From the NCBI GenBank assembly GCA_035284745.1, contig JAYKIL010000024.1:62001-126000 (forward strand): a stretch of 64,000 bases of DNA, in the 5' to 3' direction. The DNA is from JAYKJB01 sp035284745 [NCBI: Candidatus Sericytochromatia bacterium]. GTDB taxonomy: Bacteria > Cyanobacteriota > Sericytochromatia > S15B-MN24. Shown here piece by piece: positions 10,060-43,970 of this stretch (its first letter is position 1; each line of letters begins with the position of its first letter). Below the pieces are notes generated by a model. It was not told the origin of the DNA. It saw only the letters and a list, made by a program, of their open reading frames with translations, and did not search any database. The position numbers and the translations under genes are program-made.

Positions 10060-10116
10060 GGTGCGGAATTCTTTGCCTCTGCCTGCCAAAGGGCCGATTC
10101 CCCACCATCATGTGTT

Positions 10117-11594: not shown

Positions 11595-11664
11595 ATGGGA
11601 ATTGATGGGCCGAAAGGCTCAGTTGATTTGGGAGAGCCAGTCGCTGCTGCCGGCGACGTCTGAC

Positions 11665-11692
11665 TTGACAAGCAGACGCGGAGTTTTAAACA
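11665..11692 (+). promoter_or_regulatory. Weak candidate promoter upstream of the pilin gene
   Basis: TTGACA (11665-11670) is followed after 16 bases by TAAACA (11687-11692), a perfect -35 with a poor -10. A TATAAG at 11753-11758 lacks a -35 partner. These sit in the 259-base gap between the helical-repeat gene and the pilin gene, where I see no other gene I trust. Confidence 0.28.
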
Positions 11693-11853
11693 ATGAGGGC
11701 GCCTGATCGTCGGGAAGGCTAATTGCTCGGTTAGGGTTTGCCTTTGCGCCGGTATAAGCAACTTGTTCAGTCCCCAGCGAAATGGGGTGCTGAAAACTCA
11801 CTCGCGACGCTGTGCAATTCTGCGCGCAGCCAGACAGGAGACTGCTGAATTTT

Positions 11854-12450: not shown

Positions 12451-12476
12451 TTCCGTCTAGACACACCAAGTACGAA

Positions 12477-12505
12477 CGCGGGGGTTGGCCCCCGCGTTTT
12501 TTTTT
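12477..12505 (+). terminator. Rho-independent terminator after the pilin gene
   Basis: Perfect 8-bp stem CGCGGGGG (12477-12484) and CCCCCGCG (12489-12496) with a TTGG loop, followed by nine T residues (12497-12505). Textbook intrinsic terminator, 27 bases after the pilin stop codon. Confidence 0.95.
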
Positions 12506-12595
12506 CCCGACTCGTGATCGCCTTGTTACTGCTGTCACGGCACTGAGGGGGTTGGCCATGCTTCAATCGGGAGCTTGTGTCTTGAGGTAAATATA

Positions 12596-15080: not shown

Positions 15081-15193
15081 CGTGAATGAACCTTCCATGC
15101 AGTTGTGACCCTCGCCATATACCCTCGCGCCCGTTTGAACCCACTGTAAAGGGGGTACGTTGCCATCCCAGCGACCCCTCACAGGGCTTAACG

Positions 15194-16747
15194 ATGCCGG
15201 TTTTTGAAGCGGTTTTTAAGGATGCAAACAATCGCTTCTCTAAGGAGCGCCTGACCGCTGCCAATGTGCGGGAAGCGCGAACCTTGCTGCGGGATCGGGG
15301 CCAGTTGCCCCTGTCCCTGACGGCGGTCAGCGTCAGTACCCTATGGGTTGAACGCTTGCGAGGTGCCATTGCGAAGGCAGGTCCCTCGGCTGAAGAACGG
15401 CAACGTCAGTCGGCGTTGAAAGCCAAACGGAAAGCTGAATCTGAGGCTTTCAGAGCCAAGGTCGGTGCGCTTCAGTATTTCGCCTATGAGGCGATTAATG
15501 ACGACACCCGCGAGGAGGTCGTGGGCTTAATCCGAGCCCACAGTGTCAAGGAGGCCCGCCAAATGCTGCGTGAGCAGCGTCTGTTGCCCAAGTCCATTCA
15601 ACGAGATTACTTCGGACAATTTAAGGACAACAAAGATGGGGGCCCCCAGGCGAAGAAGCAGGACGATTTCAAAACGACCGATTTTGAGCGTTTGGTGCAG
15701 CGGGTGTTTCCGCCTTCCGTCTCACAAAAGGATTTGACGCTGATGGCTCAGCAGTTGGCTGCCATCACACAGGCGGGTCTTCCGATCGTCCAAGCACTCC
15801 ATTTGTTGCGAGATACCGTTCAGAACAAGCATCTCCAGGTCATTATCACTGAAATGACCGAGCAAATTTCCCAAGGGGTTTCGTTTGGAGAGTGCATTAA
15901 GAATTACCGAGACGTCTTTCCCCCTCTCTTCATCGAGTTGGTTGATATGGGCGAGACGACCGGTAACCTCGATGAGAATATGGGGCGCTTGGCCGATTAC
16001 ATGGCAAAACAACTTGAATTACAGCAGAAGGTCAAAGGCGCGATGACCTATCCCCTGATCGTGTTGGGCATTCTGACGCTGATTGTGGTGGGTTTGATGA
16101 TCTTTATTGTTCCGACTTTCATGAAGCTGTTCAAAGAATTTAAGGTGCAGCTGCCGCTAGCCACAGAAATGTTGTTGTGGATGAGTTGGTTCGTCACCCA
16201 TCGCTGGTACACCGTTTTCGTGCTGCCTGTGGTGTGGTGGTTGGGACGATTGGTTGTCCGAACGGCCGTGTTTCGTTTTGTGTGGGACAAATTAGAGTTT
16301 AAGATTCCCATTTTTGGGCCATTAAACTACAAGGTGACTTTGACTCACATGTTGAATAATATGGCGATTTCTTTACGTTCTGGGTTGACGGTCATTCGCG
16401 CCTTGGATTCACTGGAGGAAAACGTTCGCAATCATTTGTTGAAAGACAAGGTGGCTGAGATTACCGAAAATGTGAAGATGGGTGCCCGTCTGGGAACGGT
16501 CGTTTTGGCCGCAGATATCTTTCCGCCCTTGGTGAATCGGCTCATCGCCGTGGGCGATGAAACGGGTGGGATGGATGATATGCTCTTTCGTGCATCGACG
16601 TACATGGACAATGAGGTGGAGCAAGCGGTGAAGACCCTGACTTCGGCCATCGAGCCGATGATGACCTTGTTGTTGGGGGGCACGGTCATGTTTATTGTCG
16701 GGGCGCTGTATTTTCCCTTGATGGGTATTATGGGGGGAGCGAAATGA
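15194..16747 (+). CDS. pilC: Type IV pilus inner-membrane platform protein PilC
   Basis: PilC/GspF family platform that the assembly ATPase rotates during pilus growth. The 517-residue protein carries two T2SSF domains: one starting near KDLTLMAQQLAAITQAGLPI with LVDMGETTGNLDENM, the second near LTHMLNNMAISLRSGLTV with VGDETGGMDDM. Three to four membrane helices are present. The N-terminus is extended: two copies of the short FEA(V/I)..D.....ARxxLRxxxLLPxSI motif occur at about residues 3-45 and 96-140, where homologues have one. ATG at 15194; no strong ribosome site. The stop overlaps the next pilin-like gene. Confidence 0.93.
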   Translation: MPVFEAVFKDANNRFSKERLTAANVREARTLLRDRGQLPLSLTAVSVSTLWVERLRGAIAKAGPSAEERQRQSALKAKRKAESEAFRAKVGALQYFAYEAINDDTREEVVGLIRAHSVKEARQMLREQRLLPKSIQRDYFGQFKDNKDGGPQAKKQDDFKTTDFERLVQRVFPPSVSQKDLTLMAQQLAAITQAGLPIVQALHLLRDTVQNKHLQVIITEMTEQISQGVSFGECIKNYRDVFPPLFIELVDMGETTGNLDENMGRLADYMAKQLELQQKVKGAMTYPLIVLGILTLIVVGLMIFIVPTFMKLFKEFKVQLPLATEMLLWMSWFVTHRWYTVFVLPVVWWLGRLVVRTAVFRFVWDKLEFKIPIFGPLNYKVTLTHMLNNMAISLRSGLTVIRALDSLEENVRNHLLKDKVAEITENVKMGARLGTVVLAADIFPPLVNRLIAVGDETGGMDDMLFRASTYMDNEVEQAVKTLTSAIEPMMTLLLGGTVMFIVGALYFPLMGIMGGAK

Positions 16748-25137: not shown

Positions 25138-26130
25138 TCAATGTGAGCCAAACACGCGGGCTGCTACCCGCGCGAAAAAGCCGGTCGCCGCTTCACGAGG
25201 TGTTTCGCTTTCAATGGGATCAATCAACAGGCTCGCCAGCATGTTGATGCGGCGTGTTGAGGGGCCGTAGGGGAACGCGCGAAAAAACGGCTGTTGCTGC
25301 AGCACCGAGCGACTGACTTGCGGATCTTTTTCGATATGGGTCAGGAAGGAAACATCAATTTCCAAAAACCGATCGACGATCATGATCAGTTTCTGTGCCA
25401 CGGCCCGCGCTTCTTGCTCTGACTCGGCCATGTTAATGATGAGACGGACCTGCGCCAATGGGTTGTGCTGATCGATCGACTTAATCAAGCCATAGGCATC
25501 GGTAATCGCGGTTGGCTCGGGGGTTGTCACCACCAAAACCTCGTGGGCTGCCAAAACAAAGTTCAAGACCCCGCGGCTGATGCCCGCACCCGTGTCTACC
25601 AGTATAAAGTCTGCACGGTCCTCTAAAATGGCCATTTGTCGTATGAAACCATTCAGTTTGTCTTGGTCCAGGTCGGCCAATTCGTGGATGCCGGAGCCCC
25701 CGGGCACAATCTGAAGATGGTCACTGATGGGCAGTAGAACGTCATCAAGAGACTTGCGCCCCGCAATGACATCTCCCAAGTGAGCCTTGGGTGAGACGCC
25801 CAGGATGACATCGACGTTGGCCATGCCAAGGTCAGCATCGAACAAAACGGTTCGCTTTTCGCGCTTCGCCAAGGCGAGCGCGAGGTTGACAGTGATGTTG
25901 GTTTTTCCCACGCCGCCTTTTCCGCTGGTGACCACGATGACGCGGGCGGGGGATGTTAACGGCAAAGCAGGGACCGTACTCATCGCAACAGAGGCAATCG
26001 TTGGCGTCCCTGTGACTTCCTCGGTCTCGGCACCCCAACGGATGGACTCTGCCGCATTGTCGACGGCCGCCCCCGCAGCCTTGGGAATATGCCGCATGAG
26101 CTCTCGCAGGCGCTTTGCTTGGTCACTCAT
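25138..26130 (-). CDS. flhG: Flagellar number regulator FlhG (MinD-like ATPase)
   Basis: MinD/ParA-family ATPase that limits flagellar number with FlhF. The 330-residue product has an N-terminal extension with RLRELMRH (comparable to the activating DQAxxLR helix), then VTSGKGGVGKTNITVNLALA (deviant Walker A), VLFDADLGMANVDVILG and VDTGAGI. ATG start. It is 5 bases downstream of flhF, last gene of the leftward motility block, and converges with pilB across a small GGCTCA/TGAGCC hairpin. Confidence 0.94.
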   Translation of the reverse strand: MSDQAKRLRELMRHIPKAAGAAVDNAAESIRWGAETEEVTGTPTIASVAMSTVPALPLTSPARVIVVTSGKGGVGKTNITVNLALALAKREKRTVLFDADLGMANVDVILGVSPKAHLGDVIAGRKSLDDVLLPISDHLQIVPGGSGIHELADLDQDKLNGFIRQMAILEDRADFILVDTGAGISRGVLNFVLAAHEVLVVTTPEPTAITDAYGLIKSIDQHNPLAQVRLIINMAESEQEARAVAQKLIMIVDRFLEIDVSFLTHIEKDPQVSRSVLQQQPFFRAFPYGPSTRRINMLASLLIDPIESETPREAATGFFARVAARVFGSH

Positions 26131-26135
26131 CTCTG

Positions 26136-27611
26136 TTAACTCTTCAACTGAGTGACGAGCATCCGTGCGAGCGTCTCTCCCTCCGCGACGGAGATATCAT
26201 CGGGCACACTTTGCCCTGTCGTGATGTAGGAGACGGGCAAACCGGTTTCGTGGGCGATCGAAATGGCACCCCCTATGATGTCTGTTTCATCTGTTTTTGA
26301 GAATATCAAGCGATCCACCCCCGTGGATGCGAAATGTTTGACAATCTGCTTGAGGTCAGCGAGGCGTGTTGTCGCAGACAAGACCAGATGTGCCTCGACC
26401 TGAGGCTCTACGTCTAAAAAGCTTCGGAGTTCATTGATATGCAGTCGGTTGTAGGGGCTGCGTCCCGCGGTATCGATAAGAATGAGGCCTTTGTCCTGAT
26501 GTTGTTTCAAGGCCTCTTTTAGGCTTTGCGGGGTCAACACCACATCCACTGGCAAACCGATGATGTCTCCATAGGTTTTCAATTGTTCGATGGCCGCGAC
26601 CCGGTAGGTGTCGATGGTGAACAGGGCCATTTCAGCCTGTCGTGACAGTGCAAAATTAGCGGCCAATTTGGCAATGGTTGTTGTTTTCCCGACGCCCGTG
26701 GGGCCCACCAAAGAGACGATCTTGCGCTCGCCGGGCATCGGGGCGATCGGACCACTTACTTTGAGTAATCCGGCAATCGGGGTTTCAAGAGCATCGCACA
26801 GGTCCTCATACACTTTGAGATGAGGTTGCTCTTTTTGCAGGTATACGACGAGGCCTCTGGCAATGGATGGGTCAACATCCAACGACAAAAGGCGGTCGTA
26901 AACTTTTTGCATCAACGTCGGGAACTGCGCGACGCTGCGAGGTGCGATCTCAAGCTTGCCAGCCAATGTTGTCATCATCGCCTTGAGGTCTGTCACGGTC
27001 GCTTTCAAGTCGGATACCTCATCCACCAGGCGTTCAGTTTCAGGCATCATCGTCACAACAGGCACCGGAGTGGGGTCCGGTTCTTGGGTTACGACGGGTG
27101 GGGCCGCAGGGGGTTCGATGCGCTGAGCGACACTTTGTACGATCGGTTCAGGGTCAATTTCTGCGACGGCCACGGCGGGTTGAGGCCGCACGGGAGCGGC
27201 TTCCAGTTCCGGTGCGGGGCGCGTGTTTGGGGCCTCGCGGGGGGGAGGAGGCGGGTCCCAACGCTCTGATGCTGGCGCCTCTTCTCGATCCTTGGCACGT
27301 TTTCCGAAAGGGCCCAATTCCAGCGCATCCGAGTCTTTGGGAGAGCCCCAATTGATTGATTTTTCCGGTTCATTGGACCGATCGAACGCGGCGGTCAGGG
27401 GGTTCGCATTTCTCCCATTGGAAGTCGACTTTTCTTTGGCGTCACCGGGGTCGGCGGCGAGCACCTCGACCACGTCTTGGGTAAAAAATCCCATGAAGCC
27501 GCCTTTTTTCATCTTGCGACTGTGGAGAATGACTGCGTTGGGGCCCAAGTCCACTTTGATTTTCAAAATGGCTTCTTGAATGGTTGGCGCCGTATATTGC
27601 CGAATCTTCAA
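26136..27611 (-). CDS. flhF: Flagellar placement GTPase FlhF
   Basis: SRP-type GTPase that fixes flagellar site. The 491-residue product has the B domain (MKIRQYTAPTIQEAILKIK, LGPNAVILHSRKMKKGG), a Pro/Glu-rich linker to about residue 200, then the NG domain with GPTGVGKTTTIAKLAANF near residue 303, DTYRVAAIEQLKTY, DTAGRSPYN and FSKTDETDIIGGAI. The start codon is TTG, supported by a strong GGGAGGAAG a few bases upstream. Directly followed by flhG. Confidence 0.95.
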   Translation of the reverse strand: MKIRQYTAPTIQEAILKIKVDLGPNAVILHSRKMKKGGFMGFFTQDVVEVLAADPGDAKEKSTSNGRNANPLTAAFDRSNEPEKSINWGSPKDSDALELGPFGKRAKDREEAPASERWDPPPPPREAPNTRPAPELEAAPVRPQPAVAVAEIDPEPIVQSVAQRIEPPAAPPVVTQEPDPTPVPVVTMMPETERLVDEVSDLKATVTDLKAMMTTLAGKLEIAPRSVAQFPTLMQKVYDRLLSLDVDPSIARGLVVYLQKEQPHLKVYEDLCDALETPIAGLLKVSGPIAPMPGERKIVSLVGPTGVGKTTTIAKLAANFALSRQAEMALFTIDTYRVAAIEQLKTYGDIIGLPVDVVLTPQSLKEALKQHQDKGLILIDTAGRSPYNRLHINELRSFLDVEPQVEAHLVLSATTRLADLKQIVKHFASTGVDRLIFSKTDETDIIGGAISIAHETGLPVSYITTGQSVPDDISVAEGETLARMLVTQLKS

Positions 27612-32806: not shown

Positions 32807-33589
32807 TTAGCGGCGCAGGTTATTCGCCATGCCAAGCATCTCGTCGGACGTTTGCACCGACTTCGAATTGGCTTCGTAGGCGCGTTGGGCGATGATAAGA
32901 TTGATCATCTCTTCCACGACCTTTACATTCGACATTTCAATATAGCCTTGGGCGATGGTGCCCAGTCCCTCAACGTTCGGATTGGCAATCACGGGATCGC
33001 CCGATGCCGGGGTTGGCATATACAGGTTTCGACCGATGGCTGTCAGGCCCGCTGGGTTGATAAAACGGGCCAGGGAAATTTGGCCGACGGTTGTTATGTT
33101 GTTACCAATTTGAACCGTGATGATGCCTTCCGACGTCACGGAAGGGTTGGTGGCCCCTTGGGGCACCGTGATTTGCGGAACCAGCATCAAACCTTCGCTG
33201 GTCACGATCTGACCGTTGCCATCTATTTTGAACGAGCCGTCCCGGGTAAATGCCATCTGGCCATCGGGACGTTGAATCTGAAAGAACCCCTCTCCTTCGA
33301 TGACCCAATCGAAGGGGTTTTCGGTCTGTTGGAAATCACCCTGAGAGAAAATTCTTGCGGTCGCCGAGTTGTGGACGCCCATCCCTACCTGCGTTCCGAC
33401 GGGCATTTGTGTCCCCGATTGCATCGGGGTTCCCGCTTGGCGCGCCGTCCGGTACATCAAGTCTTTGAATTCGGCCCGGACTTTCTTGAATCCCAGGGTG
33501 TTGGCGTTGGCGAGGTTGTTAGAGGTCACGTCGATGTTGGTTTGCTGGGCTCGCATGCCAGTCGCAGCGGTCCAAAGGGCTCCCATCAT
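32807..33589 (-). CDS. flgG: Flagellar distal rod protein FlgG
   Basis: The 260-residue protein has the family N-terminus (MMGALWTAATGMRAQQTNID, TSNNLANANTLGFKK) and C-terminus (SNVKVVEEMINLIIAQRAYE, SVQTSDEMLGMANNL). Length 260 is standard for FlgG. The 142-base gap behind flgF suggests it may have its own promoter. Confidence 0.95.
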   Translation of the reverse strand: MMGALWTAATGMRAQQTNIDVTSNNLANANTLGFKKVRAEFKDLMYRTARQAGTPMQSGTQMPVGTQVGMGVHNSATARIFSQGDFQQTENPFDWVIEGEGFFQIQRPDGQMAFTRDGSFKIDGNGQIVTSEGLMLVPQITVPQGATNPSVTSEGIITVQIGNNITTVGQISLARFINPAGLTAIGRNLYMPTPASGDPVIANPNVEGLGTIAQGYIEMSNVKVVEEMINLIIAQRAYEANSKSVQTSDEMLGMANNLRR

Positions 33590-33731: not shown

Positions 33732-34508
33732 TTATGCCCGCGCCACTTCATTGACCGCCTTGCCCAAGGTCTCGTCCGCGGCCTGCAGGGCTTTCTGGTT
33801 GGCTTCATAGTGGCGAAGGGCTGCGATCATCTCGACCATCTCCTGCACAGAGTTAACATTGGCCCCTTCGAGCATTCCTTGATGGACTTGCGCGGTGCTG
33901 GGGAAGGGGGCAGTCGCTCCTCGAAACTTGAAGGCGGTGTCTCCGACTTTTTCCAAGTCAGCATCCGGGTTTTCAAAGCGAACAATGGCCAGTTTTTCAA
34001 TCGGGGTGTTGTTCACAAAAATCGTGCCGTCTTGTGACACCACGAACTGCCCGGCCGATGGCACTTGAATCGGGCCCCCTTGACCCTGAACGAGTCGCCC
34101 GCGCTTATCAATGAGAAACCCTTCACCGTTCCGGGCGAAGTCGCCGGCGCGTGTGTAAAGATTCTCTCCATTCGCATCCACCAGGGTAAAAAAACCGTCT
34201 CCTTCAATAGCGAAGTCGAGCGGGTTGCTTGTTTCCTGCATCATTCCTGCATCGAAGCGTTTTGATAGGGTATTGACCAGAACCCCCGTGCTCAGTTCTC
34301 CGATGGGGACGCGCCGCGTCGGGGCGAGGGGATCACCTGACACAGGATCGTTGGTTCGCCGAATCGCCACCTTTTCACGGGCTTCCAAGATCGCCAGGTC
34401 GCGCTTGAATCCGCTGGTGTTCATATTGGCAAGGTTGTTGGCAATGGCATCTTGCCTAATTTGTTCTGCCTGCATTCCGGCAGATGCTGTATAGAGGCCC
34501 CGAATCAT
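33732..34508 (-). CDS. flgF: Flagellar proximal rod protein FlgF
   Basis: The 258-residue protein of the FlgF/FlgG family begins MIRGLYTASAGMQAEQIRQD with NNLANMNTSGFKRD. Central NPLDFAIEGDGFFTLVD and a C-terminal ANVNSVQEMVEMIAALRHYE helix complete it. It differs from FlgG in the MIRGLYTA start typical of FlgF. ATG with GAGGAG 6 bases upstream. It directly follows the lytic transglycosylase gene by 3 bases. Confidence 0.92.
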   Translation of the reverse strand: MIRGLYTASAGMQAEQIRQDAIANNLANMNTSGFKRDLAILEAREKVAIRRTNDPVSGDPLAPTRRVPIGELSTGVLVNTLSKRFDAGMMQETSNPLDFAIEGDGFFTLVDANGENLYTRAGDFARNGEGFLIDKRGRLVQGQGGPIQVPSAGQFVVSQDGTIFVNNTPIEKLAIVRFENPDADLEKVGDTAFKFRGATAPFPSTAQVHQGMLEGANVNSVQEMVEMIAALRHYEANQKALQAADETLGKAVNEVARA

Positions 34509-34511: not shown

Positions 34512-35153
34512 TTACTCCTCGCTGAATTGGTTGTAGAGTTTCATCACGCGATTCACGTAGTTTTGCGTTTCTCTGTAGGGCGGTACGCCCCCGAAATGCG
34601 ATACGGTTCCCGGGCCCGCGTTGTAAGCCGCCAAACCCTTCTCCAAACCGAATCTCTGGGTCAGTGTCGCGAGATATTTTGTTCCACCCTCGATATTCTC
34701 TTTGGGGTCGTAGGCATTGCCCACCCCCAAGGAGCGGGCCGTCGCGGGCATCAATTGCATCAATCCCATCGCGCCCGCAGGGCTCGTTGCCTGGGGATTG
34801 CCACCTGATTCCGTGGAGACGACAGCCCGCACCAAGGCCGGATCCACGCCGTGGCGCGCTGCGGCCTGCTGTATCACCTCTCGATAGGCGCCGCTGCCAC
34901 CCGTCTTGGCCGACGAGGGCCCTAAACTGGCCGAACGAATGGGCTCGCTGGGGTGGTCTGGGGTTGAGGCATGCCCCAATTTCATCCGCGCGGCGTTCAA
35001 ATTTTCTTGAAAGGCTGCGGGCGTTTTGGCCTTTATCCCGATCCGATTTTCAATGGAGGCAATGCGGCTTTGGATGCGGTCGATAGATGCCAGTGCTGCG
35101 CTGATACCAGGTTTCACACTCAATCCTCCCGGCTGGGTTGACTCTTCCAGCAT
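34512..35153 (-). CDS. Soluble lytic transglycosylase (flagellum-associated)
   Basis: SLT-family peptidoglycan hydrolase, likely opening the wall for the rod. The 213-residue protein has a helical N-terminal region and a catalytic domain with VRAVVSTESGGNPQATSPAG (catalytic Glu in TESGG), AMGLMQLMPATARSLGV, NIEGGTKYL and LAAYNAGPGTVSHFGG. Its coupling to flgF and the flagellar block points to rod assembly, complementing the muramidase-free FlgJ. ATG 35153 is used; a GTG two codons upstream is possible. No clear signal peptide is present, so export may go through the flagellar apparatus. Confidence 0.88.
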   Translation of the reverse strand: MLEESTQPGGLSVKPGISAALASIDRIQSRIASIENRIGIKAKTPAAFQENLNAARMKLGHASTPDHPSEPIRSASLGPSSAKTGGSGAYREVIQQAAARHGVDPALVRAVVSTESGGNPQATSPAGAMGLMQLMPATARSLGVGNAYDPKENIEGGTKYLATLTQRFGLEKGLAAYNAGPGTVSHFGGVPPYRETQNYVNRVMKLYNQFSEE

Positions 35154-35257
35154 GCCCACGATGCTGGGGCCCCGCCGTGATCCCCATCAGACATAATCCC
35201 CTTTTAGGTATCGATGCCCGTGGCACAAAGCTTGAGCGTATCGGTTTTTAACGAGTG

Positions 35258-36818
35258 CTACGCGCGCGGAGCCTTCTTATCGCCAATCAGGCGATTCAAA
35301 ACTTCTCTTCTGCGGCTCATTGAGTTTTCTGAAGCGTTCGATTTCAGGGTGCTGCCCGAGTCCGCAAGGGTGCCCGACGCGGGCGCTGGCGTAATCTCAG
35401 GCAATGGCTGCGATGCTGATTCCCGCACGCTGGTGGCCTGTTCTGTCGGGGGCGCAGCCATGGGGCCTCCCCCGCCGCGCATTTGTGACATCTGCAGCAT
35501 TAACTCGCGCATCTGAGATTTCAATTCGTCCATTTCGTTACTCTGGGCGCGTGTTTCCGACAGTCTGTCGCGGAATTGATTCCGGTCACGACGCATTTCA
35601 TCGATTTGTCGCCGCAATTCGATCAACTCCGCCGCAGCTTCTTCGAGGTCCAAATTCGCCTTGACCTTTGCTTCTCGCAGATTACTGATTTGAAGCGTCG
35701 CCTCTCTGTGTTCATCCGTCAGGCGTTTGATCTCGAGTTCAAATTCGGTTTTCTCGCGTGCGCTCAGACCGCTGGGCTCATCTACAAGCTGTTGTATGCG
35801 CGCCTGAAGCGCCTGTTTTTCGACGGCCGCCTGTTCCATTTGGGCTTTGTAAGCCAGCACGCGATCCTCGAGTTCCGCCAACACCCGTGCCTGGGGACCT
35901 CCGCCGGCCAATTGTCCCTGGAGTGCCTCTACCTCGCCCTGTAGCTTGGTCACCTGGTGGCGCAGTTCTTGCTTGTCTTGCTGAAATTGTTCGAGTTCTT
36001 CTTCTGCTTTGTTGGCCCGTTCCTCTGCGATCGCCAGTTCGGCTTGCGTGGTGGCGTATGCATCGGACACTTGATTGCGTTCTTTCGAGACGGATTCCAC
36101 TTTCTCGCGCAATTCGTCGAGTTCATCAATCACGGGGGCCAAACGAGACGAAACCCCATCACGCTCCACTTCAGCCTGGCGGCGGGCTTGCAATGCCGTC
36201 TCCAGTTGACCTTTTACTTCCGCCAGATCCTGTTTCAAAGAATCGATTTCAGTCTGCTTGCGCGCAACGTCACCTTTCACGCCTTCTGCCGACAGCAGTT
36301 GGCCGAGAAGTTCCTGCACCCGATCATTCAGTTGCTGGTTTTCAAAGCCTAGTTTTTCGACCTCTGCCAGTGCCTTGGCGTGATCTTCTGGACTGGCCGA
36401 GCCCGCGTGGCCTTCCCGGAGTTCTGAAATTTCGTGCCGCAGCGAAGACACAAGCGCTTCTTGCACGGAAAGCTTGCTCTGTAATTGCAGTTTTTCTGCC
36501 CGTAAGTTGGCGAGGGCATCCTGGGTGTCCAACAATTGCTGCTGGGCCACGTTGAGATCGGCTTCCAGTTGGGTCAAAAGGTTGGTGTCAGTGCTTGGGC
36601 CCGCGTTGCGAAGTTCGCTCATCGAGCGCTCTATTTCAGCAATGGTCGCCTTTTGCTCTTCAATTTTGGCTTTATAAAGCCTGTTCTCATTCTTGAGATT
36701 GTTATATTTGCCTTCAATCGACTTGAGCACCTGTTTCAATTGCTCAGCGGTGATAGGGTTTTGCTCGTCTTCGCCTGTTTTGGGGCCGAGCAGTTTGCCC
36801 AGTTGGGATTGCAACTGC
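35258..36818 (-). CDS. Long coiled-coil protein (3' part; whole gene 35258-36826)
   Basis: The gene is 35258-36826 (522 codons); the entry stops at 36818 only to separate it from its overlapping neighbour. The first 52 residues (FGP-like LLGPKTGEDEQNPITAEQLK, VLKSIEGKYNNLKNEN) match the start of the next gene upstream. Residues 50-445 are an almost unbroken heptad-rich coiled coil full of Glu, Lys, Gln and Leu. The tail has Gly/Pro/Ser-rich low complexity and ends with basic SRRREVLNRLIGDKKAPRA. No enzyme domain seen. It overlaps the small paralogue by 8 bases, in one operon with an actin-like ATPase. I infer a filament-bundling or scaffold protein. Confidence 0.85.
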
Positions 36819-37121
36819 TCAAACACAGGTTTCGTCCTCCGGTTCTTCCGACAGTGTGGGGGCGGGGACCTGCTCCAAAGCGAGCTCTAGTCGTTCAAGC
36901 TCTCCTTGTTGCCGGTTGATGGTATCAAGCAGTTGCACTTTTTCAAGACGATGCTCTTCCAGTCGATCGACCAGTCTTGCGTTTTCATCTTTGAGTGCAG
37001 CGTACTTCTCCTCGATGGATTTCAACACGATGCCCAGTTGGTTCGCTGTGATCGCGCCCATAGGATCTTCATCCTTTGGGCCGAACAGCTTGGCTGCTAG
37101 GGCCTTCAGGAAATCCGCCAC
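36819..37121 (-). CDS. Small coiled-coil protein, paralogous to its downstream neighbour
   Basis: The 100-residue protein has an N-terminal block LFGPKDEDPMGAITANQLGI then VLKSIEEKYAALKDEN that matches the first 50 residues of the next gene (shared GPK, ITAxQL, VLKSIExKY, LKxEN). A coiled coil (about 45-80) and an acidic Pro-rich tail (SEEPEDETCV) follow. GTG start 3 bases after the actin-like gene, with GGGGGA within that gene's end as ribosome site. The downstream gene begins 8 bases before this one stops. I infer heterotypic coiled-coil pairing between the two. Confidence 0.85.
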   Translation of the reverse strand: MADFLKALAAKLFGPKDEDPMGAITANQLGIVLKSIEEKYAALKDENARLVDRLEEHRLEKVQLLDTINRQQGELERLELALEQVPAPTLSEEPEDETCV

Positions 37122-37124
37122 GGA

Positions 37125-38381
37125 TTATCCCCCTTCGCGGAGCGGGGTTGCGATCGCGTATTCGAAGAAGCCCTTCACGTTGTAATAGCGAGGATCCTGA
37201 GCCAATTGAAGGTCACGGAAATACGGATACTTCGTGAGCAGAGGGTAGAGAATGCGACCAAAACCACCCACCAACAACATGCGGTGGATTCTTAGATCGC
37301 GCCAGCTTTGCCGCACGGTCAGCGCGATTTGCTGTGCCATAATTTCTTTCAAGCTTTCGACCAGATGCTCCGGAACCGTGAGTGTATCACCCTGGTTATC
37401 CTTGTAGACACCTGTTACGAGGCTTTCTTGGACCGCAATGGGGTTGATGCGTGGCACCATCTGCTCACTGAGAAATGAGGCCACTTCTTCATACAAACGG
37501 TGACCTGCCACGGCCGTTGTGTGGCCAGAGTACTTGGTTAATTCATTCGGGAGACGCACCACCACCCAGTCTGTTGTCAGGTGGCCAGGATCGATGACAC
37601 CGATCGTTTCTTCCGGATTGTAATCGAGTTGACCCGCCAAAATGGCAGCATACACCGAACCCACCGGCTGCGGAATCGTATCGATTTGAATAATTTCGAT
37701 GGTGACGTTCTCCCCGCAGAAAGTGAATTCGTGGCGCCCGAGCCACTCGCGCAAGGACGAATCGATGTATTCGGGGCGACGGCCCAGGTAAACGGGCAGG
37801 CCCAGACAAATTTTATAGCGAGGAATACTGGTCTGCCCGGTACGGCGCGCCAGCAAAGCCAATGATGCCAGAACCAACGCCTTGTTCAGCTCTCCTTGAA
37901 AAATATTTTCGTCGTTGACCGGGAACAAGAAGGGCTGCTCCATCGCGTAACGGCCGATGCTGTATTCGTGACCGTCAATCTTGACCCACAAATTCTGTTC
38001 CAAGTTCTCGTCCAGCAGTTGGGCACTGCCGCGCCGAATGGTTGCGACCGGTCCACCCACCAGTGTGGGGAATATAAACAGATGCTCTCCGTCGTAAATG
38101 CGGGTTTCTGAGCGTCCCAGGTCGAGGCCGACGTTGATGACCTCCGTGCGACTGCCCCGTGAAGCTCCATACGCTGAATCCAACCCCACCGTCCGACTGA
38201 CGACCGGACGCGGCGTTTCGGCACGCACCGGTTCTTCAGGCAACGAAGCTGCCACAGGCGGTGGCGGAGGCGCCTGAACAGGCGCGGGCACATCTCGCTT
38301 CACCAAAAACACCCGGCCGGCCATTCGAGCAGGTAGAACGTAAGTGAGGCGAACCATTTGTGGGGCGTTTTCGGTGGTCAT
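37125..38381 (-). CDS. Actin-like ATPase (ParM/Alp-type)
   Basis: The 418-residue protein has an 80-residue Pro-rich extension and then an actin/Hsp70-fold core. Visible motifs are phosphate 1 VGLDLGRSETRIYDG, FPTLVGGP, phosphate 2 GVIDPGHLTTDWVVV, and adenosine LLVGGFGRIL. These resemble plasmid-segregation ParM and related bacterial actins more than MreB or FtsA; it also lacks PilM features. The ATG at 38381 has GAGGA 5 bases upstream. It is the first gene of the leftward motility block, driven by a near-consensus promoter, and followed by two coiled-coil genes. A polymerising positioning or segregation filament is the inference; there is no plasmid-type context here. Confidence 0.85.
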   Translation of the reverse strand: MTTENAPQMVRLTYVLPARMAGRVFLVKRDVPAPVQAPPPPPVAASLPEEPVRAETPRPVVSRTVGLDSAYGASRGSRTEVINVGLDLGRSETRIYDGEHLFIFPTLVGGPVATIRRGSAQLLDENLEQNLWVKIDGHEYSIGRYAMEQPFLFPVNDENIFQGELNKALVLASLALLARRTGQTSIPRYKICLGLPVYLGRRPEYIDSSLREWLGRHEFTFCGENVTIEIIQIDTIPQPVGSVYAAILAGQLDYNPEETIGVIDPGHLTTDWVVVRLPNELTKYSGHTTAVAGHRLYEEVASFLSEQMVPRINPIAVQESLVTGVYKDNQGDTLTVPEHLVESLKEIMAQQIALTVRQSWRDLRIHRMLLVGGFGRILYPLLTKYPYFRDLQLAQDPRYYNVKGFFEYAIATPLREGG

Positions 38382-38400
38382 GAATCCTCGTCCCGAGCAA

Positions 38401-38446
38401 GGAGGGCTGGCACACCCCATCAGTGGGTGCCCAATAACAGCCTCAA
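38401..38446 (-). promoter_or_regulatory. Hairpin in the leader of the actin-like operon
   Basis: Between the predicted start of transcription and the ATG of the actin-like gene, GGCAC-A-CCC pairs with GGGTGCC, and an outer GGCTG/CAGCC closes the structure. The leader is about 60 bases long. No riboswitch family recognised. Confidence 0.4.
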
Positions 38447-38475
38447 ACTATAGTATGCAGACGAAAGCGTGTCAA
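38447..38475 (-). promoter_or_regulatory. Near-consensus sigma70 promoter of the actin-like/coiled-coil operon
   Basis: On the minus strand TTGACA (38470-38475, perfect) and TATAGT (38447-38452, five of six) are separated by exactly 17 bases. This is the best promoter in the window. It sits in the 108-base gap before the actin-like gene and could drive the flagellar genes beyond it. Confidence 0.82.
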
Positions 38476-38489
38476 ACGGCGCTCCATCC

Positions 38490-41294
38490 TTATTGGTCAC
38501 TCCGTTGGTCCATAAACGACAAAGCGCCGCCGTTTGGCGCGACCCTCGGATTGCCGCGATAGGGCATCAGGCGGTCGGCGGACTCGTCGGGCGTGAAAGG
38601 CATTTGGGTTTTGAGAATCAGGTTGACCGACGCGGGGAAAATGGGGGGCGCCAGGGTGAGCAAACGTTGGTCAAAGATGAAGTCTTTGTCATACGACGTG
38701 TTGCCACTTCCCAAAATTCCGCGTTTTTTCACCGTGATGGAGCCAAACACCAGCAATCGACCCCGCGGGTTGGCGTTGGGGTTGGTGGTGGGGGTAATAC
38801 TCAATCTTCCGTACTCGTAGTGCCCTGGAAACCCCCGCCCCAGGCCTGCTGGGCTGTTCCAGTGCAAGTTCGTCGGCATCGGCCTTTGACCAGGCGTGTT
38901 GGCATCCGTTTCGTTCCACGTGGCATTGGTGGGCACAGGAAGTCCTTGGGCGTTGTTTAAAACCCAGTAGTTTTCGAAGTTGCCTTGGAGTTGCATCAAA
39001 CCCTCGGTGGTAAAAGAACCGACGTAACGGCGGGGGCGTTGGAAATATATCGGGTCGAGGGAGTCGCTGGGGTTGACGGCCCACGGCCGCCACGCCGGAT
39101 CGCCCAGGGCGCTGATGGAACCCAAAATGGCCACGCCAATTCCTCCACGCGTGGGGTTGCTTGGCGCGCGCAACCCTACGACCACTTGTTGGTCTGAAAC
39201 CAGGCCCAGAAGATCACTGCTGTTGGTCAGACGCAAGTTGCGCAAGTTGTCGCGATTTAACCGGGATTGGGGATTGTAGGGGGGGGTGTTGGGATTGGCA
39301 GCGCTCGTGTAGACAGATTGCACGAGCAAATGATTCTGAATAAAGATGCTCCCCCGGGCCATAATCGTTAATTTTCCCGCCGGGCGGGGGGTTCCGGTTC
39401 CGGCGTTAGGCATCTCCGTCGAGATGACCTCGCCGCTGTGCCCGTTCAGGCGACGTTGACCAACCGTCTCATAGGGATTGCCTAAATTGAGGATGTGGCC
39501 CGTGGTGGCGATTCGCCGGGCAGCGTTCGTAAAGGCCGGGTCATCGCGGCAGGGATCCACAAAAATCACCCCGTTAAAGGCCGGGGCGTTGCCTCCCCGG
39601 GGCACGAAAGTGGCCCTCACTTTTTGGGTGTTATGGACGCTCCAACTCGCAGGATTGGGGTTCGTGGCTGCGCCTCCGTTGGCCAGGGTAATTAAACTTG
39701 CCAGCGTGCTGTTCCCCGTCAGGATGTTGCCGTAAAGGGTTTGCCCTTGAGGCCATGCCCACAAACGCATTCCTCCGGTGTCTCGATCCGCAACGACCAG
39801 GTAGCAGCGGCGCTGAAAATTGGTGGCGGAGGTTACTAATCCGGTGGTCGTGCCCTCAGCGGCAGGATCGGTTGCAGTCCCACTGGTGGTGATCGAGGCG
39901 ACCTGAAACAGGTAGCCGGTTCGGGGCCCGTCGACCGTGATTCGCAAGTGCTCGACGTTACCTCGGACATAAATCCCTCCTGCGACGGGACTGTTGTCAT
40001 AACTTTGATCATGGTTGGTCTGGTCCCCCCAGAATTTTCTGGTGGGAATATAGAGGCCATCACTGAGCCTGCGCCAGCGATTTCGGCGATCAGCGTCCTG
40101 CATGACCAGGGCGGTCATGCCGGTCGCAGCCCCCACGCTGTCGCGCACCGAGCGTGGCAGCTGAATCGGACGGTCCAGCGGTTCCGGCCCGCGGATGCCC
40201 GGGCCATAGCGTTGACCGGATGGGGCGCCGTTCTCCGAAGAGGTAAATATTTGGCTGCTGTAGGTGCCGACACCGGTTTGACTGTTGAGCCATACCCGGC
40301 CGTTGGCATTGACCATCGAAAACGCGGTGTTGCCGGGTTGGGGGTCAAAGTTGGGAAAGTTTGGGTCTCCTTGAAGAATTTCTGTCATCGTTACCCTTGC
40401 GCGAAAAACCGGTGCTTTCACCCCACCCACCTCTTGAAAGCCTGGGTTGCCGGGGACAGCGGTATCGGCGATCGCCAGGTCCATCGATGAGCGCACATCG
40501 CGCAGGCGAAAGGGTTGGCCTTGTACTGAACGCGTGATTCCAGGGTTTGCGATGTCTCCTGGCGTTCCCGGAAGCAGAAAAGGGGGTTGGTCCACGTACC
40601 CCCGGTTGATGTGCACCGGCCCACTGATGACTTCCCCTGGAACCCAGTTGCGAATCAGGTCGATGTCGGTCAGGGCGGCGTAGCGTGAGGTGGGTTCCTT
40701 GCCCAGCGTGGCGAGAATGACGCGTTCCACTTTGATCGAGCGACGCTCCGATGCGTCGACGTCGTTGTTATTTCCCGTATTCGCGCCAAAGCGTACCTGA
40801 CGCACACGGCCGGCCACTCCCACAAGGTACTGCCGGGGCATATTCTCTGAGATTCTAAACTGCTGAATCCGCGCTTTGAAGCTGGTGACAAAGCGAGGGC
40901 GTCCACCAGCGCCGGATTCTTTTTGCACCCCGACCACCATCTCGTGGATTCGGTTGCCGAGGATTTTGCCCGGAGCGGCATCTTGGAGGTTCACCACATC
41001 CGCGTCCGGTTGCATCACCCTGACAGGGTCAAAGGTCTGACCATCGTCGAGTTCCTCCCATTCTTGGGGCAGTTTGTTGAGGCGATCGATACTTTGGTCG
41101 GCCCAACCGAGGACCATTTCAAGGCCCGTGCGGGCGGCGTCTTCCGCTGCGGCCCGCAAGCGGTCGTTTCGGCTGATGGAGCCAGCGCTGGATACGTAGG
41201 CCATTGAGCCAATCATCAGGGTCAAAAAGACAGTGGTGATGCCCAGCGAGGTGGCGAGGATTGAGCCGCGACGGCCCTGATGATTGACGCGCAC
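38490..41294 (-). CDS. Giant PilX-like pilus-associated protein
   Basis: The 934-residue protein has a short basic start and then GSILATSLGITTVFLTLMIG, a PilX-type N-terminal helix without the Glu5 prepilin site. The remaining 880 residues are rich in Asn, Pro, Gly, Thr and Arg with beta-type character and no catalytic motif I know. It is far larger than PilX (about 170-200 residues), so the bulk is probably an exposed surface domain. GTG start with AAGGAGG 7 bases upstream. Last gene of a three-gene leftward operon with two prepilin-like genes. Confidence 0.75.
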   Translation of the reverse strand: MRVNHQGRRGSILATSLGITTVFLTLMIGSMAYVSSAGSISRNDRLRAAAEDAARTGLEMVLGWADQSIDRLNKLPQEWEELDDGQTFDPVRVMQPDADVVNLQDAAPGKILGNRIHEMVVGVQKESGAGGRPRFVTSFKARIQQFRISENMPRQYLVGVAGRVRQVRFGANTGNNNDVDASERRSIKVERVILATLGKEPTSRYAALTDIDLIRNWVPGEVISGPVHINRGYVDQPPFLLPGTPGDIANPGITRSVQGQPFRLRDVRSSMDLAIADTAVPGNPGFQEVGGVKAPVFRARVTMTEILQGDPNFPNFDPQPGNTAFSMVNANGRVWLNSQTGVGTYSSQIFTSSENGAPSGQRYGPGIRGPEPLDRPIQLPRSVRDSVGAATGMTALVMQDADRRNRWRRLSDGLYIPTRKFWGDQTNHDQSYDNSPVAGGIYVRGNVEHLRITVDGPRTGYLFQVASITTSGTATDPAAEGTTTGLVTSATNFQRRCYLVVADRDTGGMRLWAWPQGQTLYGNILTGNSTLASLITLANGGAATNPNPASWSVHNTQKVRATFVPRGGNAPAFNGVIFVDPCRDDPAFTNAARRIATTGHILNLGNPYETVGQRRLNGHSGEVISTEMPNAGTGTPRPAGKLTIMARGSIFIQNHLLVQSVYTSAANPNTPPYNPQSRLNRDNLRNLRLTNSSDLLGLVSDQQVVVGLRAPSNPTRGGIGVAILGSISALGDPAWRPWAVNPSDSLDPIYFQRPRRYVGSFTTEGLMQLQGNFENYWVLNNAQGLPVPTNATWNETDANTPGQRPMPTNLHWNSPAGLGRGFPGHYEYGRLSITPTTNPNANPRGRLLVFGSITVKKRGILGSGNTSYDKDFIFDQRLLTLAPPIFPASVNLILKTQMPFTPDESADRLMPYRGNPRVAPNGGALSFMDQRSDQ

Positions 41295-41316: not shown

Positions 41317-42867
41317 TCACCGTCGTTCGAAACGGAACGACATATCCTGGAAACGATTGAGTGACTCCAACTCTACTTCGACCGATTCCGTCGCGAACGC
41401 GAAGGGCGTTTGCCGCGAGTAACGGAATCGAGTGGCAACGCTGATGAGCGCACGGCGAGGGGGACCCACCGTGAGCGGATTGTCTGGGTGCCAGAAACGA
41501 GGGCTGTAGGTTTGTGGGCCGCCGGTTGCATTGACATAAGGACGGGGGGCGTTTTCCCCGCGGGCAATCAACCCAATATCACCAGTATTCACGTCCCTGA
41601 CCCAATCGTTACCCAAACGCACACTTGTGCCGTGAATGGAATCGGGGTCGATGTAAGAGGCCAGCACCTGATCACGGATGGGGCGGCCGTTGCCGATGTA
41701 GCCTGTTCCGTCCCACTCGCCGCGATCGCCAAGGGCGTCATTCGTGGGGGGGTCGTTGCCTACATTGTCCCAGTTACAATGCATGCGGTTGGTTCCGCGC
41801 ACGCGAGCGCCTGACGGGTTTCCCCATGGCCCTGCTGAAGTGGCACTGAATAGGTTGTAGGTGGTGTCCAGGTTGGGCATCGGGACCGGGTCGTAATTGC
41901 ATTGGTTGGGCTCGACATCAAAAGGTGGAGGAAGCACGCCTGTATCATCGGCTCTGCGGCCGGTATTCAAACGTCGCACGGGGGCCCCGTTCTGCGCTGT
42001 CGCGTTGCGGATCACTTTGACATCCGGAATGGTCAACAGGCGCAACTCGAAGGGCACGGGCGCGCGGGTTGCGCTTCCCTGCATTTGATCGCGTTGGGCA
42101 AAATTTCCCCGGATGATGGGCAGCAACCCGTCGTCTCCGGTTGCGTAGGCGTTGGAGGGCAAGCGCATGGGAGCAAGGTATGCCACGTAAAATGTCCACG
42201 ACACGGGCAGTCCCGCGTCCATCCGTTCGACACCGGGCCCGCCGCCCGCTGCCTGAAGGCGGCCGGCACTGAATTGCGCCTCGGCGCAGTAAAGCAAGGG
42301 TGACGGGAAATAATGCTCGAAGCGGTTGGCGGTGGGTGCGCCGGCCGATAACAGGCGGGCGGTGCGCAGGTAAAATTGATCGGTTTGAATGGTGTCAGCG
42401 GTCCCTGCTGTGGTGGCCAGATTCAAGCCGTGCCCGCGAAATTCACGCCTTAACTGATTGGTCCACCCGGTGAAGGGAGTAATATAAGTGGAGTTTCCGG
42501 GGTTGGTCCAGCGGTGGTTGACGCTGTTGCCGCCGGCGCTATCGCGCAAGACGCCAGGGAGATTGGCGTCCCGTTGAACATTCGACAGCGCCACGGTCTC
42601 CGGTGTCGCCATTTGTCCCAATGGTCTCGGGTCGAAGAAAATAATGTGAGCCCGTCGAACCACCTTGGCTAGTTTTTGGACTGCGCTGTTGGCCTCCTGC
42701 CGCGTCGTTATCCGTGCTTTTGCCAAATCGCCAACCTTCTTCGCCTCACTGAAACCTTGCATGGCCAGACCCATCACCAAACCGACCAAGGCCGTGGCCG
42801 TGAGGACTTCGAAAAGGCTGAAGCCATTGCGGGTGCAGAAGCTGAAGGGACGTGCTGTGGGGGTCAT
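41317..42867 (-). CDS. Large prepilin-like protein (PilW-like)
   Basis: The 516-residue precursor has leader residues then NG|FSLFEVLTATALVGLVMGLA, a prepilin site with Glu5. The extended region (EANSAVQKLAKVVRRAHIIF) continues the pilin alpha helix, as in PilW. A large Asn/Pro/Gly-rich globular part follows. The ATG overlaps the upstream stop by one base (TAATG), implying coupling. Much larger than typical PilW, so an adhesive or structural extension is likely. Confidence 0.82.
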   Translation of the reverse strand: MTPTARPFSFCTRNGFSLFEVLTATALVGLVMGLAMQGFSEAKKVGDLAKARITTRQEANSAVQKLAKVVRRAHIIFFDPRPLGQMATPETVALSNVQRDANLPGVLRDSAGGNSVNHRWTNPGNSTYITPFTGWTNQLRREFRGHGLNLATTAGTADTIQTDQFYLRTARLLSAGAPTANRFEHYFPSPLLYCAEAQFSAGRLQAAGGGPGVERMDAGLPVSWTFYVAYLAPMRLPSNAYATGDDGLLPIIRGNFAQRDQMQGSATRAPVPFELRLLTIPDVKVIRNATAQNGAPVRRLNTGRRADDTGVLPPPFDVEPNQCNYDPVPMPNLDTTYNLFSATSAGPWGNPSGARVRGTNRMHCNWDNVGNDPPTNDALGDRGEWDGTGYIGNGRPIRDQVLASYIDPDSIHGTSVRLGNDWVRDVNTGDIGLIARGENAPRPYVNATGGPQTYSPRFWHPDNPLTVGPPRRALISVATRFRYSRQTPFAFATESVEVELESLNRFQDMSFRFERR

Positions 42868-43970
42868 TAGAAGTTGCGTCTCAATCCAAAATAGCCGGTC
42901 AATGTCGCGAGTGGTTTCGTGGGGTCATACCCCAGGCCCCTCCGTCGTCCGTTGCCGGTTTGGCTCTGGCGAAGTCCCGCGGTATTTTGGATCACCAGCA
43001 CGCTGGGCTCACGGGCAAATACGCGGACCGTCACGGTGACGACCCACAACGGCACATCCATCACCATCGTTCCATCTCCTGCCGCGCCATTCACCTCTCG
43101 CCTCAAGCTCGCCAAGCCAGGGGCTCCTGCTCCTCCCGCCCCATAGGTGGCCAGCGGCGGCTCGGGGTAATTGCGATCGGCGACGAAACCGCCGGCTACG
43201 TTGCCAAAGGGCTGCCCCAAGGGGCTGTTCGTTTGAACCCAGACTTCTCGGACAAACTTAATGGTTCGCGGCAGTTCACCCGCGCCTTCCGAGCCATCGG
43301 TGAGACCCGTCAGGCCGCGAAAGCGTTCGTTAGCCATGGGGGCGGGAATGAAGGCCACTTGAGGCGCGGCGGGTTCACCGCCGGGGGGAGAGTTCACGAA
43401 GATGGGCCGGGGTTCGACCAGTCGAGCCCCCGCAGTGTTGTTGAACCAGTCGGGGTAAACCCCGGCCACCGTGGCCGTCTGTGTACCCGTTCCTGGAATG
43501 CTTTTTGGCATGGGCGGGATGGCATTGATCGGCAAGTCGGCCGCGGGGGCGCCAGCACTTGTTTGCGCGAATTTTCGGTCCAAGGCGTTGGTCGGGTTGG
43601 CGTTATTCAGCACACTGCGAGCGGTCGGCTCTGTCGTCCCGTAGAGCCACTCGCGAACGAGCAAGACGGGGCGGTCGTTCCATACGTTGTGAAATCCCTG
43701 CCACCAGTCGATGCTGTTGTAATCTCGGTGCGTTCTGGGATTTTCAGGCGCGGGATAATAGGTTCCGCCGACGGCAATATACGGATTGGGGCACGAACGG
43801 AAATACGCCAACCGCTCAGAGGCCAAATTGGCCGCTTGCAGGGTTAAATCACTGTTTTTCGAGGTGCGCAAAACCGCAAAGGCGCCGCTCATCACGCCCA
43901 CCAGTGCTACCACCAAAACGGAGGAAGCCACCACGACCTCAAGAACCGTGAAGCCTTTTTTTGCCGCCAA
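42867..43970 (-). CDS. Prepilin-like protein (PilV-like)
   Basis: The 367-residue precursor begins MAAKKG|FTVLEVVVASSVLVVALVG, a clean prepilin site with a short basic leader and Glu5. The pattern LAAERLAYFRS-like (ASERLAYFRSCPNPYI) is typical of PilV-type minor pilins. The remaining region is Pro/Asn-rich. The start codon is TTG, supported by AGGGGGAAA about 6 bases upstream. First gene of the leftward minor-pilin operon, with a promoter candidate immediately before it. Confidence 0.82.
   Translation of the reverse strand: MAAKKGFTVLEVVVASSVLVVALVGVMSGAFAVLRTSKNSDLTLQAANLASERLAYFRSCPNPYIAVGGTYYPAPENPRTHRDYNSIDWWQGFHNVWNDRPVLLVREWLYGTTEPTARSVLNNANPTNALDRKFAQTSAGAPAADLPINAIPPMPKSIPGTGTQTATVAGVYPDWFNNTAGARLVEPRPIFVNSPPGGEPAAPQVAFIPAPMANERFRGLTGLTDGSEGAGELPRTIKFVREVWVQTNSPLGQPFGNVAGGFVADRNYPEPPLATYGAGGAGAPGLASLRREVNGAAGDGTMVMDVPLWVVTVTVRVFAREPSVLVIQNTAGLRQSQTGNGRRRGLGYDPTKPLATLTGYFGLRRNF

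What the first reader, a model, noticed from the sequence alone, without database searches (positions are those of the whole stretch)
35258..38381. Actin-like ATPase with two related coiled-coil genes heads the flagellar block
A ParM/Alp-like ATPase (DLGRSETRIYDG and DPGHLTTDW motifs) is followed within 3 bases by a 100-residue coiled-coil protein. An 8-base overlap then leads to a 522-residue coiled-coil protein. All three share one strong promoter and face the same way as the flagellar genes. I know of no described flagellar gene set with this layout. It may be a filament system for flagellar placement, chromosome or pilus positioning, or cell shape. The sequence shows the operon and motifs; the role is inference.
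Basis: partly seen in the sequence, partly recalled or inferred. Interest (0 to 1): 0.85.

Follow-up and report, generated by a model that had tools for sequence, protein, structure and literature searches.

The report
Actin-like genes heading a flagellar block
A bacterium related to cyanobacteria carries, at the head of its flagellar genes, a bacterial actin of the plasmid-partition type with its own coiled-coil partner, a pairing kept in its relatives that hints at a filament used in building or placing flagella.

Summary
ALP (37125-38381, minus strand) is a ParM-class actin-like protein by sequence. CC1 follows after 3 bases, then CC2 with an 8-base overlap. CC1 and CC2 share their N-terminal module. 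The trio stands directly before SLT-flgF-flgG.

Of 18 genomes held for the nearest relative's class, 9 encode ALP, and the same 9 encode the CC module. ALP and CC are adjacent in 10 of 10 cases, window included. They lie directly before (SLT-)flgF-flgG in 7 of 10, with an eighth likely but split between contigs. The same 9, and none of the other 9, have FlhF over its cut-off, although 8 of those 9 have strong FlgG-type matches. This is probably one clade, so about one event. The ALP core is the most constrained of eight genes compared.

ALP is not FcmB (37 bits, cut-off 300) and CC does not align with FcmC. MreB-family mbl stands 5' of flgF-flgG-flgJ in Firmicutes, significance unknown in print. 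My reading: a chromosomal ParM-class filament with a coiled-coil adaptor, used in flagellar building or placement. The role is inferred; structure prediction failed.

The parts
37125..38381 (-). ALP: ParM-class actin-like ATPase; core about residues 83-418 after a Pro-rich N-terminal extension seen only in the window, G027 and G001
   Evidence: Pfam ALP_N E 1.3e-13; profile against solved ParM E 2e-16; orthologue alignment A1
36819..37121 (-). CC1: short coiled-coil paralogue that has the N-terminal module but not the conserved C-terminal helix
   Evidence: ORF; alignments A2 and A4
35258..36826 (-). CC2: long coiled-coil partner: amphipathic N-terminal helix, ITxEQLKxVLKSIExKYxxLxxEN module, long coil, Pro/Ser-rich linker, C-terminal RRREVLNRLIGDKK segment
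   Evidence: ORF; alignment A2; helical moments
38447..38475 (-). sigma-70-type promoter-like site TTGACA-17-TATAGT upstream of ALP
   Evidence: 11 of 12 matches; kept in G027 (spacer 17) and G001 (spacer 18)
34512..35159 (-). SLT: lytic transglycosylase, first gene after the trio
   Evidence: Pfam SLT E 2.5e-29
33732..34508 (-). flgF
   Evidence: NCBIfam TIGR02490 over cut-off
32807..33589 (-). flgG
   Evidence: NCBIfam TIGR02488 over cut-off
26136..27611 (-). flhF, flagellar placement GTPase; over cut-off in the same 9 of 18 class genomes as ALP
   Evidence: NCBIfam TIGR03499 228.6 bits, cut-off 174.15; distribution
25138..26130 (-). flhG-like MinD/ParA ATPase; named FlhG from its position next to flhF
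   Evidence: NCBIfam MinD-type matches below cut-off

Best explanation
ALP and CC form a chromosomal two-part cytoskeleton that belongs to the plasmid-partition (ParM) class of bacterial actins and has become part of the flagellar programme of one clade of relatives of cyanobacteria. Proposed mechanism: ALP polymerises with ATP. CC is its adaptor: the conserved C-terminal helix after the flexible linker binds ALP, as I recall that the ParR C-terminus binds ParM, and the coiled coil makes a dimer. The conserved N-terminal module (amphipathic helix plus ITxEQLKxVLKSIExKY) attaches to the membrane, the cell pole or the basal body. The filament then places, anchors or distributes flagellar basal bodies, or guides the local wall opening by SLT for the distal rod (FlgF/FlgG), alongside FlhF/FlhG. 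CC1 is a lineage-specific truncated paralogue that could cap or modulate CC2. Shown: actin-class sequence, intact nucleotide motifs, pairing, synteny, conservation. Inferred: polymerisation, CC binding, membrane attachment, flagellar role.
For: Actin class; core residues of the phosphate-1, phosphate-2 and adenosine motifs are shared with one phage and one plasmid ParM. ALP-CC adjacent in 10 of 10; directly before (SLT-)flgF-flgG in 7 of 10, with an eighth (G030) likely but split between contigs. ALP in 9 of 18 class genomes; CC module in the same 9 (the profile also gives coil-only matches in 2 others); FlhF over cut-off in the same 9 and in 0 of the other 9 (all 18 have matches below it). 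ALP core has the lowest pN/pS of the eight genes compared between window and G027: 0.073 against FlgG 0.096 and FlgN 0.692 (whole ALP with its extension 0.139). Partner with conserved N- and C-terminal ends joined by a variable coil, as expected of an adaptor. Parallel: mbl-flgF-flgG-flgJ in Firmicutes (PMC3720852, passages).
Against: In G001 and G014 the pair is not next to flgF. Eight of the nine ALP-lacking class genomes have strong FlgG-type matches, so flagella in the class do not seem to need ALP. The ALP/CC/FlhF agreement is probably one clade (FlgG tree: one change, support 54/83), so it is about one event, not nine. All 9 ALP genomes also have MreB, so this is not a simple replacement of it. 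The promoter is not flagellar in type and is seen in only 3 of 10. No experiment exists and no structure model succeeded. Operon position does not prove shared function.
Confidence: 0.5

Rival explanations
1. A cell-shape or cell-wall cytoskeleton, analogous to FcmB-FcmC in filamentous cyanobacteria or to Mbl, that is only co-transcribed with flagellar genes.
For: FcmB is a chromosomal ParM-derived actin that is needed for rod shape in Nostoc punctiforme (PMC12645912, abstract and two sections); its family was found in the same phylum search. Mbl, also next to flgF-flgG in Firmicutes, is described there as having a role in cell morphology and polarity. The promoter is of housekeeping type. The pair persists where the flg link is broken, in G001 and G014.
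Against: Link to flgF-flgG and to FlhF across the clade. ALP is not FcmB and CC does not align with FcmC. MreB is present as well.
Confidence: 0.27
2. Operon neighbour without a shared function: the pair serves something else and sits at the flagellar block by history.
For: Linkage absent in 2 of 10; probably a single clade.
Against: Linkage kept at 40-65% ALP identity in G022, G042, G017, G008 and G002, where the upstream neighbour differs from the window's.
Confidence: 0.11
3. A type IV pilus or secretion positioning system, since pilin-like genes lie upstream.
For: Prepilin-type genes at 41317-43970 in the window, with weak or borderline motif matches, and their homologues in G001.
Against: Upstream pilin-type block found only for the window and G001, plus the end of the 38490-41294 homologue in G027; six others have a gene similar to the window's NHL-repeat gene there, in the opposite direction, and G014 an unidentified ORF.
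Confidence: 0.06
4. A plasmid or chromosome partition cassette (ParMRC) caught in the chromosome.
For: Sequence class: ParM and PRTRC-D matches below cut-off; plasmid ParM/StbA at 25.8% identity. No Pfam match speaks for or against a DNA-binding domain in CC, since Pfam also missed the ribbon-helix-helix that I read in FcmC.
Against: No repeat array in the spacers beside the genes and no tandem repeats in 34900-38700. Conservation inside a flagellar gene string across the clade.
Confidence: 0.06

Closest known systems
ParM (pCBH ParM; NCBIfam PRK13917; Pfam ALP_N)
   Same: Actin-like core over its full length with nucleotide motifs; partner gene immediately downstream
   Different: Inside a flagellar block; about 25% identity to plasmid forms; partner is mostly a long coiled coil; no repeat array beside the genes
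FcmB-FcmC of filamentous cyanobacteria (NF052678; PMC12645912)
   Same: Chromosomal ParM-derived actin with a downstream partner that ends in a short conserved segment after a linker
   Different: 37 bits against a cut-off of 300; a separate 100/100 clade, deep joins uncertain; FcmC N-terminus looks like a ribbon-helix-helix (my reading) and FcmC does not align with CC (4% probability)
CorM (PDB 9rmi)
   Same: Sequence match E 2.1e-8 with the ALP profile
   Different: Seen here only in the PDB listing; no paper on it among the results listed (20 of 33 listed, 3 of 3)
mbl-flgF-flgG-flgJ / mbl-flhO-flhP of Firmicutes (PMC3720852)
   Same: An actin-family gene directly 5' of flgF-flgG, with a gene for a wall-degrading enzyme near by
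   Different: MreB family instead of ParM class; no coiled-coil partner gene in the arrangement described
DivIVA (PF05103)
   Same: 6 of 13 CC N-terminal modules give weak matches, best E 4.5e-4; in member 1, residues 27-75 match profile 20-68
   Different: The one score shown is 15.6 bits, cut-off 28, and no locus in 18 class genomes reached the cut-off; DUF1840 matched more members (7), and other coiled-coil families matched about as well

Membership tests
ParM/Alp-class actin-like proteins | Actin-type core recognised by a family profile above its cut-off | tested here: met
   PF17989 ALP_N 51.8 bits, cut-off 26.3; MreB-like_C 25.1, just below its 27.8; solved ParM E 2e-16 with profile A1
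ParM/Alp-class actin-like proteins | Phosphate-1, phosphate-2 and adenosine motifs (motif names recalled) | tested here: met
   Core motif residues invariant in 10 of 10 orthologues and shared with one phage and one plasmid ParM
ParM/Alp-class actin-like proteins | Actin fold in a structure | tested here: inconclusive
   AlphaFold2 with 2 sequences gave mean pLDDT 35.4, unusable
ParM/Alp-class actin-like proteins | ATP-dependent polymerisation | not testable with these tools
   needs purified protein
ParMRC partition system | DNA-binding ParR partner | tested here: inconclusive
   No ParR or ribbon-helix-helix match for CC in Pfam (25 of 53 families shown), but Pfam also gave none for three FcmC proteins whose N-terminus I read as such
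ParMRC partition system | Centromere-like repeat array beside the genes | tested here: not met
   No direct repeats in 38300-38600 or 35100-35300, no tandem repeats in 34900-38700; a distant array was not sought
FcmB | NCBIfam NF052678 score of at least 300 bits | tested here: not met
   37 bits; six cyanobacterial proteins run as controls gave 506-737 bits
FcmC | Profile similarity of the partner | tested here: not met
   hhalign probability 4%, 5 columns
DivIVA | PF05103 above cut-off 28 bits | tested here: not met
   Weak matches in 6 of 13 modules; 0 of 18 class genomes with a match over cut-off
MreB/Mbl | Match to MreB_Mbl (PF06723) | tested here: not met
   Not among the ALP matches at E 0.1; the 9 ALP genomes carry separate strong MreB genes

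The most novel reading that the evidence does not exclude
A dedicated flagellar actin: a ParM-class filament, recruited once from plasmid partitioning, that positions or segregates flagellar basal bodies through a coiled-coil adaptor and works with FlhF/FlhG. It would be the second, independent pairing of an actin with flgF-flgG after mbl in Firmicutes, pointing to a general need for actin at the step where the flagellar rod crosses the wall.
Probability: 0.3. Interest if true: 0.87.

Novelty: new variant of a known kind. Interest (0 to 1): 0.62.

Why it matters
Bacterial actins are known to move plasmids, shape cells, divide them and line up magnetosomes (listed in the abstract of PMC12645912); as far as I know none is established as a flagellar part. 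Two different actin classes found directly in front of flgF-flgG, in Firmicutes and here, would make the unexplained mbl-flgFG linkage testable: is a filament needed where the rod penetrates peptidoglycan, or to choose its place? It also looks like a second chromosomal use of a ParM-class actin in the phylum that holds FcmB, with a different kind of partner.

Tried and rejected
Structure: AlphaFold2 on window plus L001 ALP gave mean pLDDT 35.4, so no fold search was made. The second job was not used.

The first FlgG tree was wrong because minus-strand loci were read in the wrong direction; redone. It uses 20 rows: window, 9 ALP genomes, 8 of 9 ALP-lacking genomes (G039 left out; G033 only its first 200 residues) and 2 outgroup rows. 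The first gene caller picked antisense frames and was replaced; in G002 the new one still missed ALP and CC, which were taken.

Replacement of polar placement proteins: I asked whether ALP stands in for FlhF; the reverse was found, FlhF occurs with ALP. MreB replacement rejected. DivIVA membership of the CC module rejected as below cut-off. A calmodulin match of the module (E 0.0062 for the whole chain, single stretches 2.8 and 96) is taken as chance. FcmC homology rejected. A centromere-like array beside the genes was sought and not found. The placement of ALP against FcmB and plasmid ParM in the tree is not settled because long branches meet.

Literature: searches on CorM (14, 17), ParMR (25), Sericytochromatia, mbl-flhO-flhP (42), ParM-like with flagellar and operon (56, 0 papers), FlhF with actin or ParM (76, 81), actin-like with flgF and flgG (82, 0 papers). 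None of the listings showed a ParM-class actin in a flagellar block; these are searches of an open-licence library, and papers other than PMC12645912, PMC3720852 and PMC5540618 were seen only as listings.

Not tested: other phyla.

Full report
WHAT IS THERE. On the minus strand the window carries ALP (37125-38381), CC1 (36819-37121) and CC2 (35258-36826), with a 3-base gap and an 8-base overlap between them. Behind them, in the same direction, follow a lytic transglycosylase (SLT), flgF, flgG, a FlgJ-like gene, yvyF, flgM, a gene in the flgN position, flgK, flgL, fliW, csrA, flhF and a flhG-like gene. Over their NCBIfam cut-offs are FlgF, FlgG, FlgM, FlgL, CsrA and FlhF; FlgJ, YvyF, FliW and the MinD/FlhG match stay below theirs; the flgN-position gene matched nothing; FlgK was not scanned and is named from my reading and its place. 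An 11-of-12 promoter match lies at 38475-38447, and the same hexamers stand upstream of ALP in G027 and G001, not in the other seven relatives. It is of the housekeeping type, not the flagellar sigma-28 type as I recall it.

WHAT ALP IS. ALP scores 51.8 bits with Pfam ALP_N (cut-off 26.3) and 25.1 with MreB-like_C, just below its cut-off of 27.8. It reaches no NCBIfam cut-off: ParM 49.7 of 417 bits, PRTRC-D 46 of 214.8, FcmB 37 of 300. A single-sequence search of solved structures gives pCBH ParM at E 2.8e-10, another plasmid ParM at 3e-9, CorM at 7.3e-6 and a Desulfitobacterium ParM at 0.0047. A profile of ten orthologues raises pCBH ParM to 2e-16 over profile positions 1-329 of 344. Core residues of the nucleotide motifs are invariant in 10 of 10 orthologues and shared with a phage and a plasmid ParM. 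A structure model was tried and failed, so the fold rests on sequence.

WHERE IT OCCURS. The one named genome found in a single scan is the MAG 'Cyanobacteria bacterium RYN_339' (L001; 84% identity in the core), which is G001. In its phylum, 63 of 386 sampled genomes match ALP at E 1e-3 or better. Nine, G001 among them, match at 40-86% identity and E 1.7e-70 or better. The other 54 have E 3.2e-14 or weaker, at 21-27% identity apart from one 58-residue match at 38%. Proteins were extracted from 23 of these weaker loci; six were run and all six are FcmB. The ALP and the cyanobacterial sets form separate groups with 100/100 support (35 rows; deep joins uncertain). The class of this genome holds 18 genomes, of which 9 have ALP. 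The tool does not name the class. I infer a non-photosynthetic class such as Sericytochromatia (listed in NCBI taxonomy) from the record title and the flagella; this is not shown.

THE PAIR AND ITS NEIGHBOURS. The CC profile matches 11 of 18 class genomes; the N-terminal module is in the same 9 as ALP, and the other two (G039, G033) give coil-only matches. ALP and CC are adjacent in 10 of 10 cases including the window. (SLT-)flgF-flgG follows directly in 7 of 10: window, G027, G022, G042 (no SLT found), G017, G008 and G002. In G030 the contig ends inside CC, and another contig begins with the C-terminal part of CC followed by SLT-flgF-flgG, so it is a likely eighth. In G001 the trio stands apart, and SLT-flgF and flgG lie in two places on another contig. 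In G014 ALP-CC-SLT stand together, while flgF, on another contig, has an integrase gene upstream. Upstream of ALP, a pilin-type block or the end of it is seen only in the window, G001 and G027; six others have a divergent gene similar to the window's NHL-repeat gene, confirmed by Pfam in the one relative tested, and G014 has an unidentified ORF. The flagellar side is thus the more conserved side. Two CC genes were found only in window, G027 and G001.

LINK TO FLHF. All 18 class genomes have some match to the FlhF model, but 9 of 18 are over its cut-off, exactly those with ALP; I take the weaker ones (best E 1e-26) for related SRP GTPases. Of the nine without ALP, eight have FlgG-type matches at E 5.1e-48 or better and one (G039) only 3.6e-18. 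In four of these nine the gene upstream of flgF was examined by Pfam and none is an actin. The FlgG tree needs only one change for ALP presence, with modest support (54/83; 78% of 200 bootstrap trees), so the shared distribution may be one evolutionary event followed by faithful retention. Completeness of these genomes is not told, so single absences are weak.

CONSTRAINT. Between window and G027, pN/pS is 0.073 for the ALP core, 0.096 for FlgG, 0.139 for whole ALP with its extension, 0.199 for CC2, 0.247 for FlgF, 0.352 for FlgK, 0.386 for SLT, 0.45 for CC1 and 0.692 for FlgN (synonymous sites nearly saturated, so ratios are rough and only comparative).

ANATOMY OF THE PARTNER. Long or single CC proteins that are complete vary from 251 to 668 residues, but both ends are kept: an N-terminal helix and the module ITxEQLKxVLKSIExKYxxLxxEN, and a C-terminal segment of the kind RRREVLNRLIG or RKLDWLMG after a linker. 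In 9 of 10 long or single CC proteins residues 2-15 have a helical moment reached by at most 2% of shuffles; the three CC1 proteins and G014 do not. Amphipathic helices also occur in coiled coils, so membrane binding is a guess. FcmC, read from the loci of cyanobacterial FcmB, has an N-terminus that I read as ribbon-helix-helix (no Pfam match supports this) and a C-terminal DPLLxRLSSLLDDF segment. It does not align with CC, so the similarity of plan is an analogy. A weak DivIVA-like match of the module (6 of 13, best E 4.5e-4, below cut-off; DUF1840 matched 7) is a lead for polar attachment and no more.

MECHANISM. The most likely reading is a ParM-class filament with a coiled-coil adaptor used in building or placing flagella. 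The strongest support is positional and comparative. The strongest doubt is that FcmB, a studied chromosomal ParM-derived actin of cyanobacteria, shapes the cell (PMC12645912, abstract and sections 6 and 10 read), and that mbl, next to flgF-flgG in Firmicutes, is described as a morphology gene; the paper that describes mbl-flgF-flgG-flgJ calls its significance 'presently unknown' (PMC3720852, passages read). Of PMC5540618 I read passages on flhO-flhP, described there as required for hook completion.

VERDICT. A real, conserved and unusual arrangement: a family of ParM-class actin with its own partner that is not FcmB or MreB by the tests made and shows no centromere array beside it. Its role in flagella is probable but unproven.

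Noticed in passing
38490-41294 (-), 41317-42867 (-), 42867-43970 (-): A 934-aa protein without any Pfam or NCBIfam match and two genes with weak prepilin-type motifs; homologues stand in the same order upstream of the trio in G001.
   Followed up: partly
58660-60315 (+); L035:8305-9357 (-): NHL-repeat protein genes; similar genes lie divergently beside ALP in six relatives, while the window's own copy is about 20 kb away.
   Followed up: partly
L088:8192-9064 (-): Phage-integrase-family gene directly upstream of flgF in G014, where the ALP pair lies on another contig.
   Followed up: no
class genomes G005, G011, G019, G033, G036, G039, G045, G048, G051: Eight of these nine have strong FlgG-type matches but none has FlhF over cut-off, so flagellar placement in this half of the class may use other means.
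   Followed up: no
the 18 class genomes searched: No match over the Pfam DivIVA cut-off was found.
   Followed up: no
191-16747 (+): More flagellar genes (FlhA, FliP and a FlgE/F/G-type gene over cut-off; FlgD, FliM/FliN and FliR below) and PilQ/PilC-like genes (below cut-off) on the other strand.
   Followed up: partly
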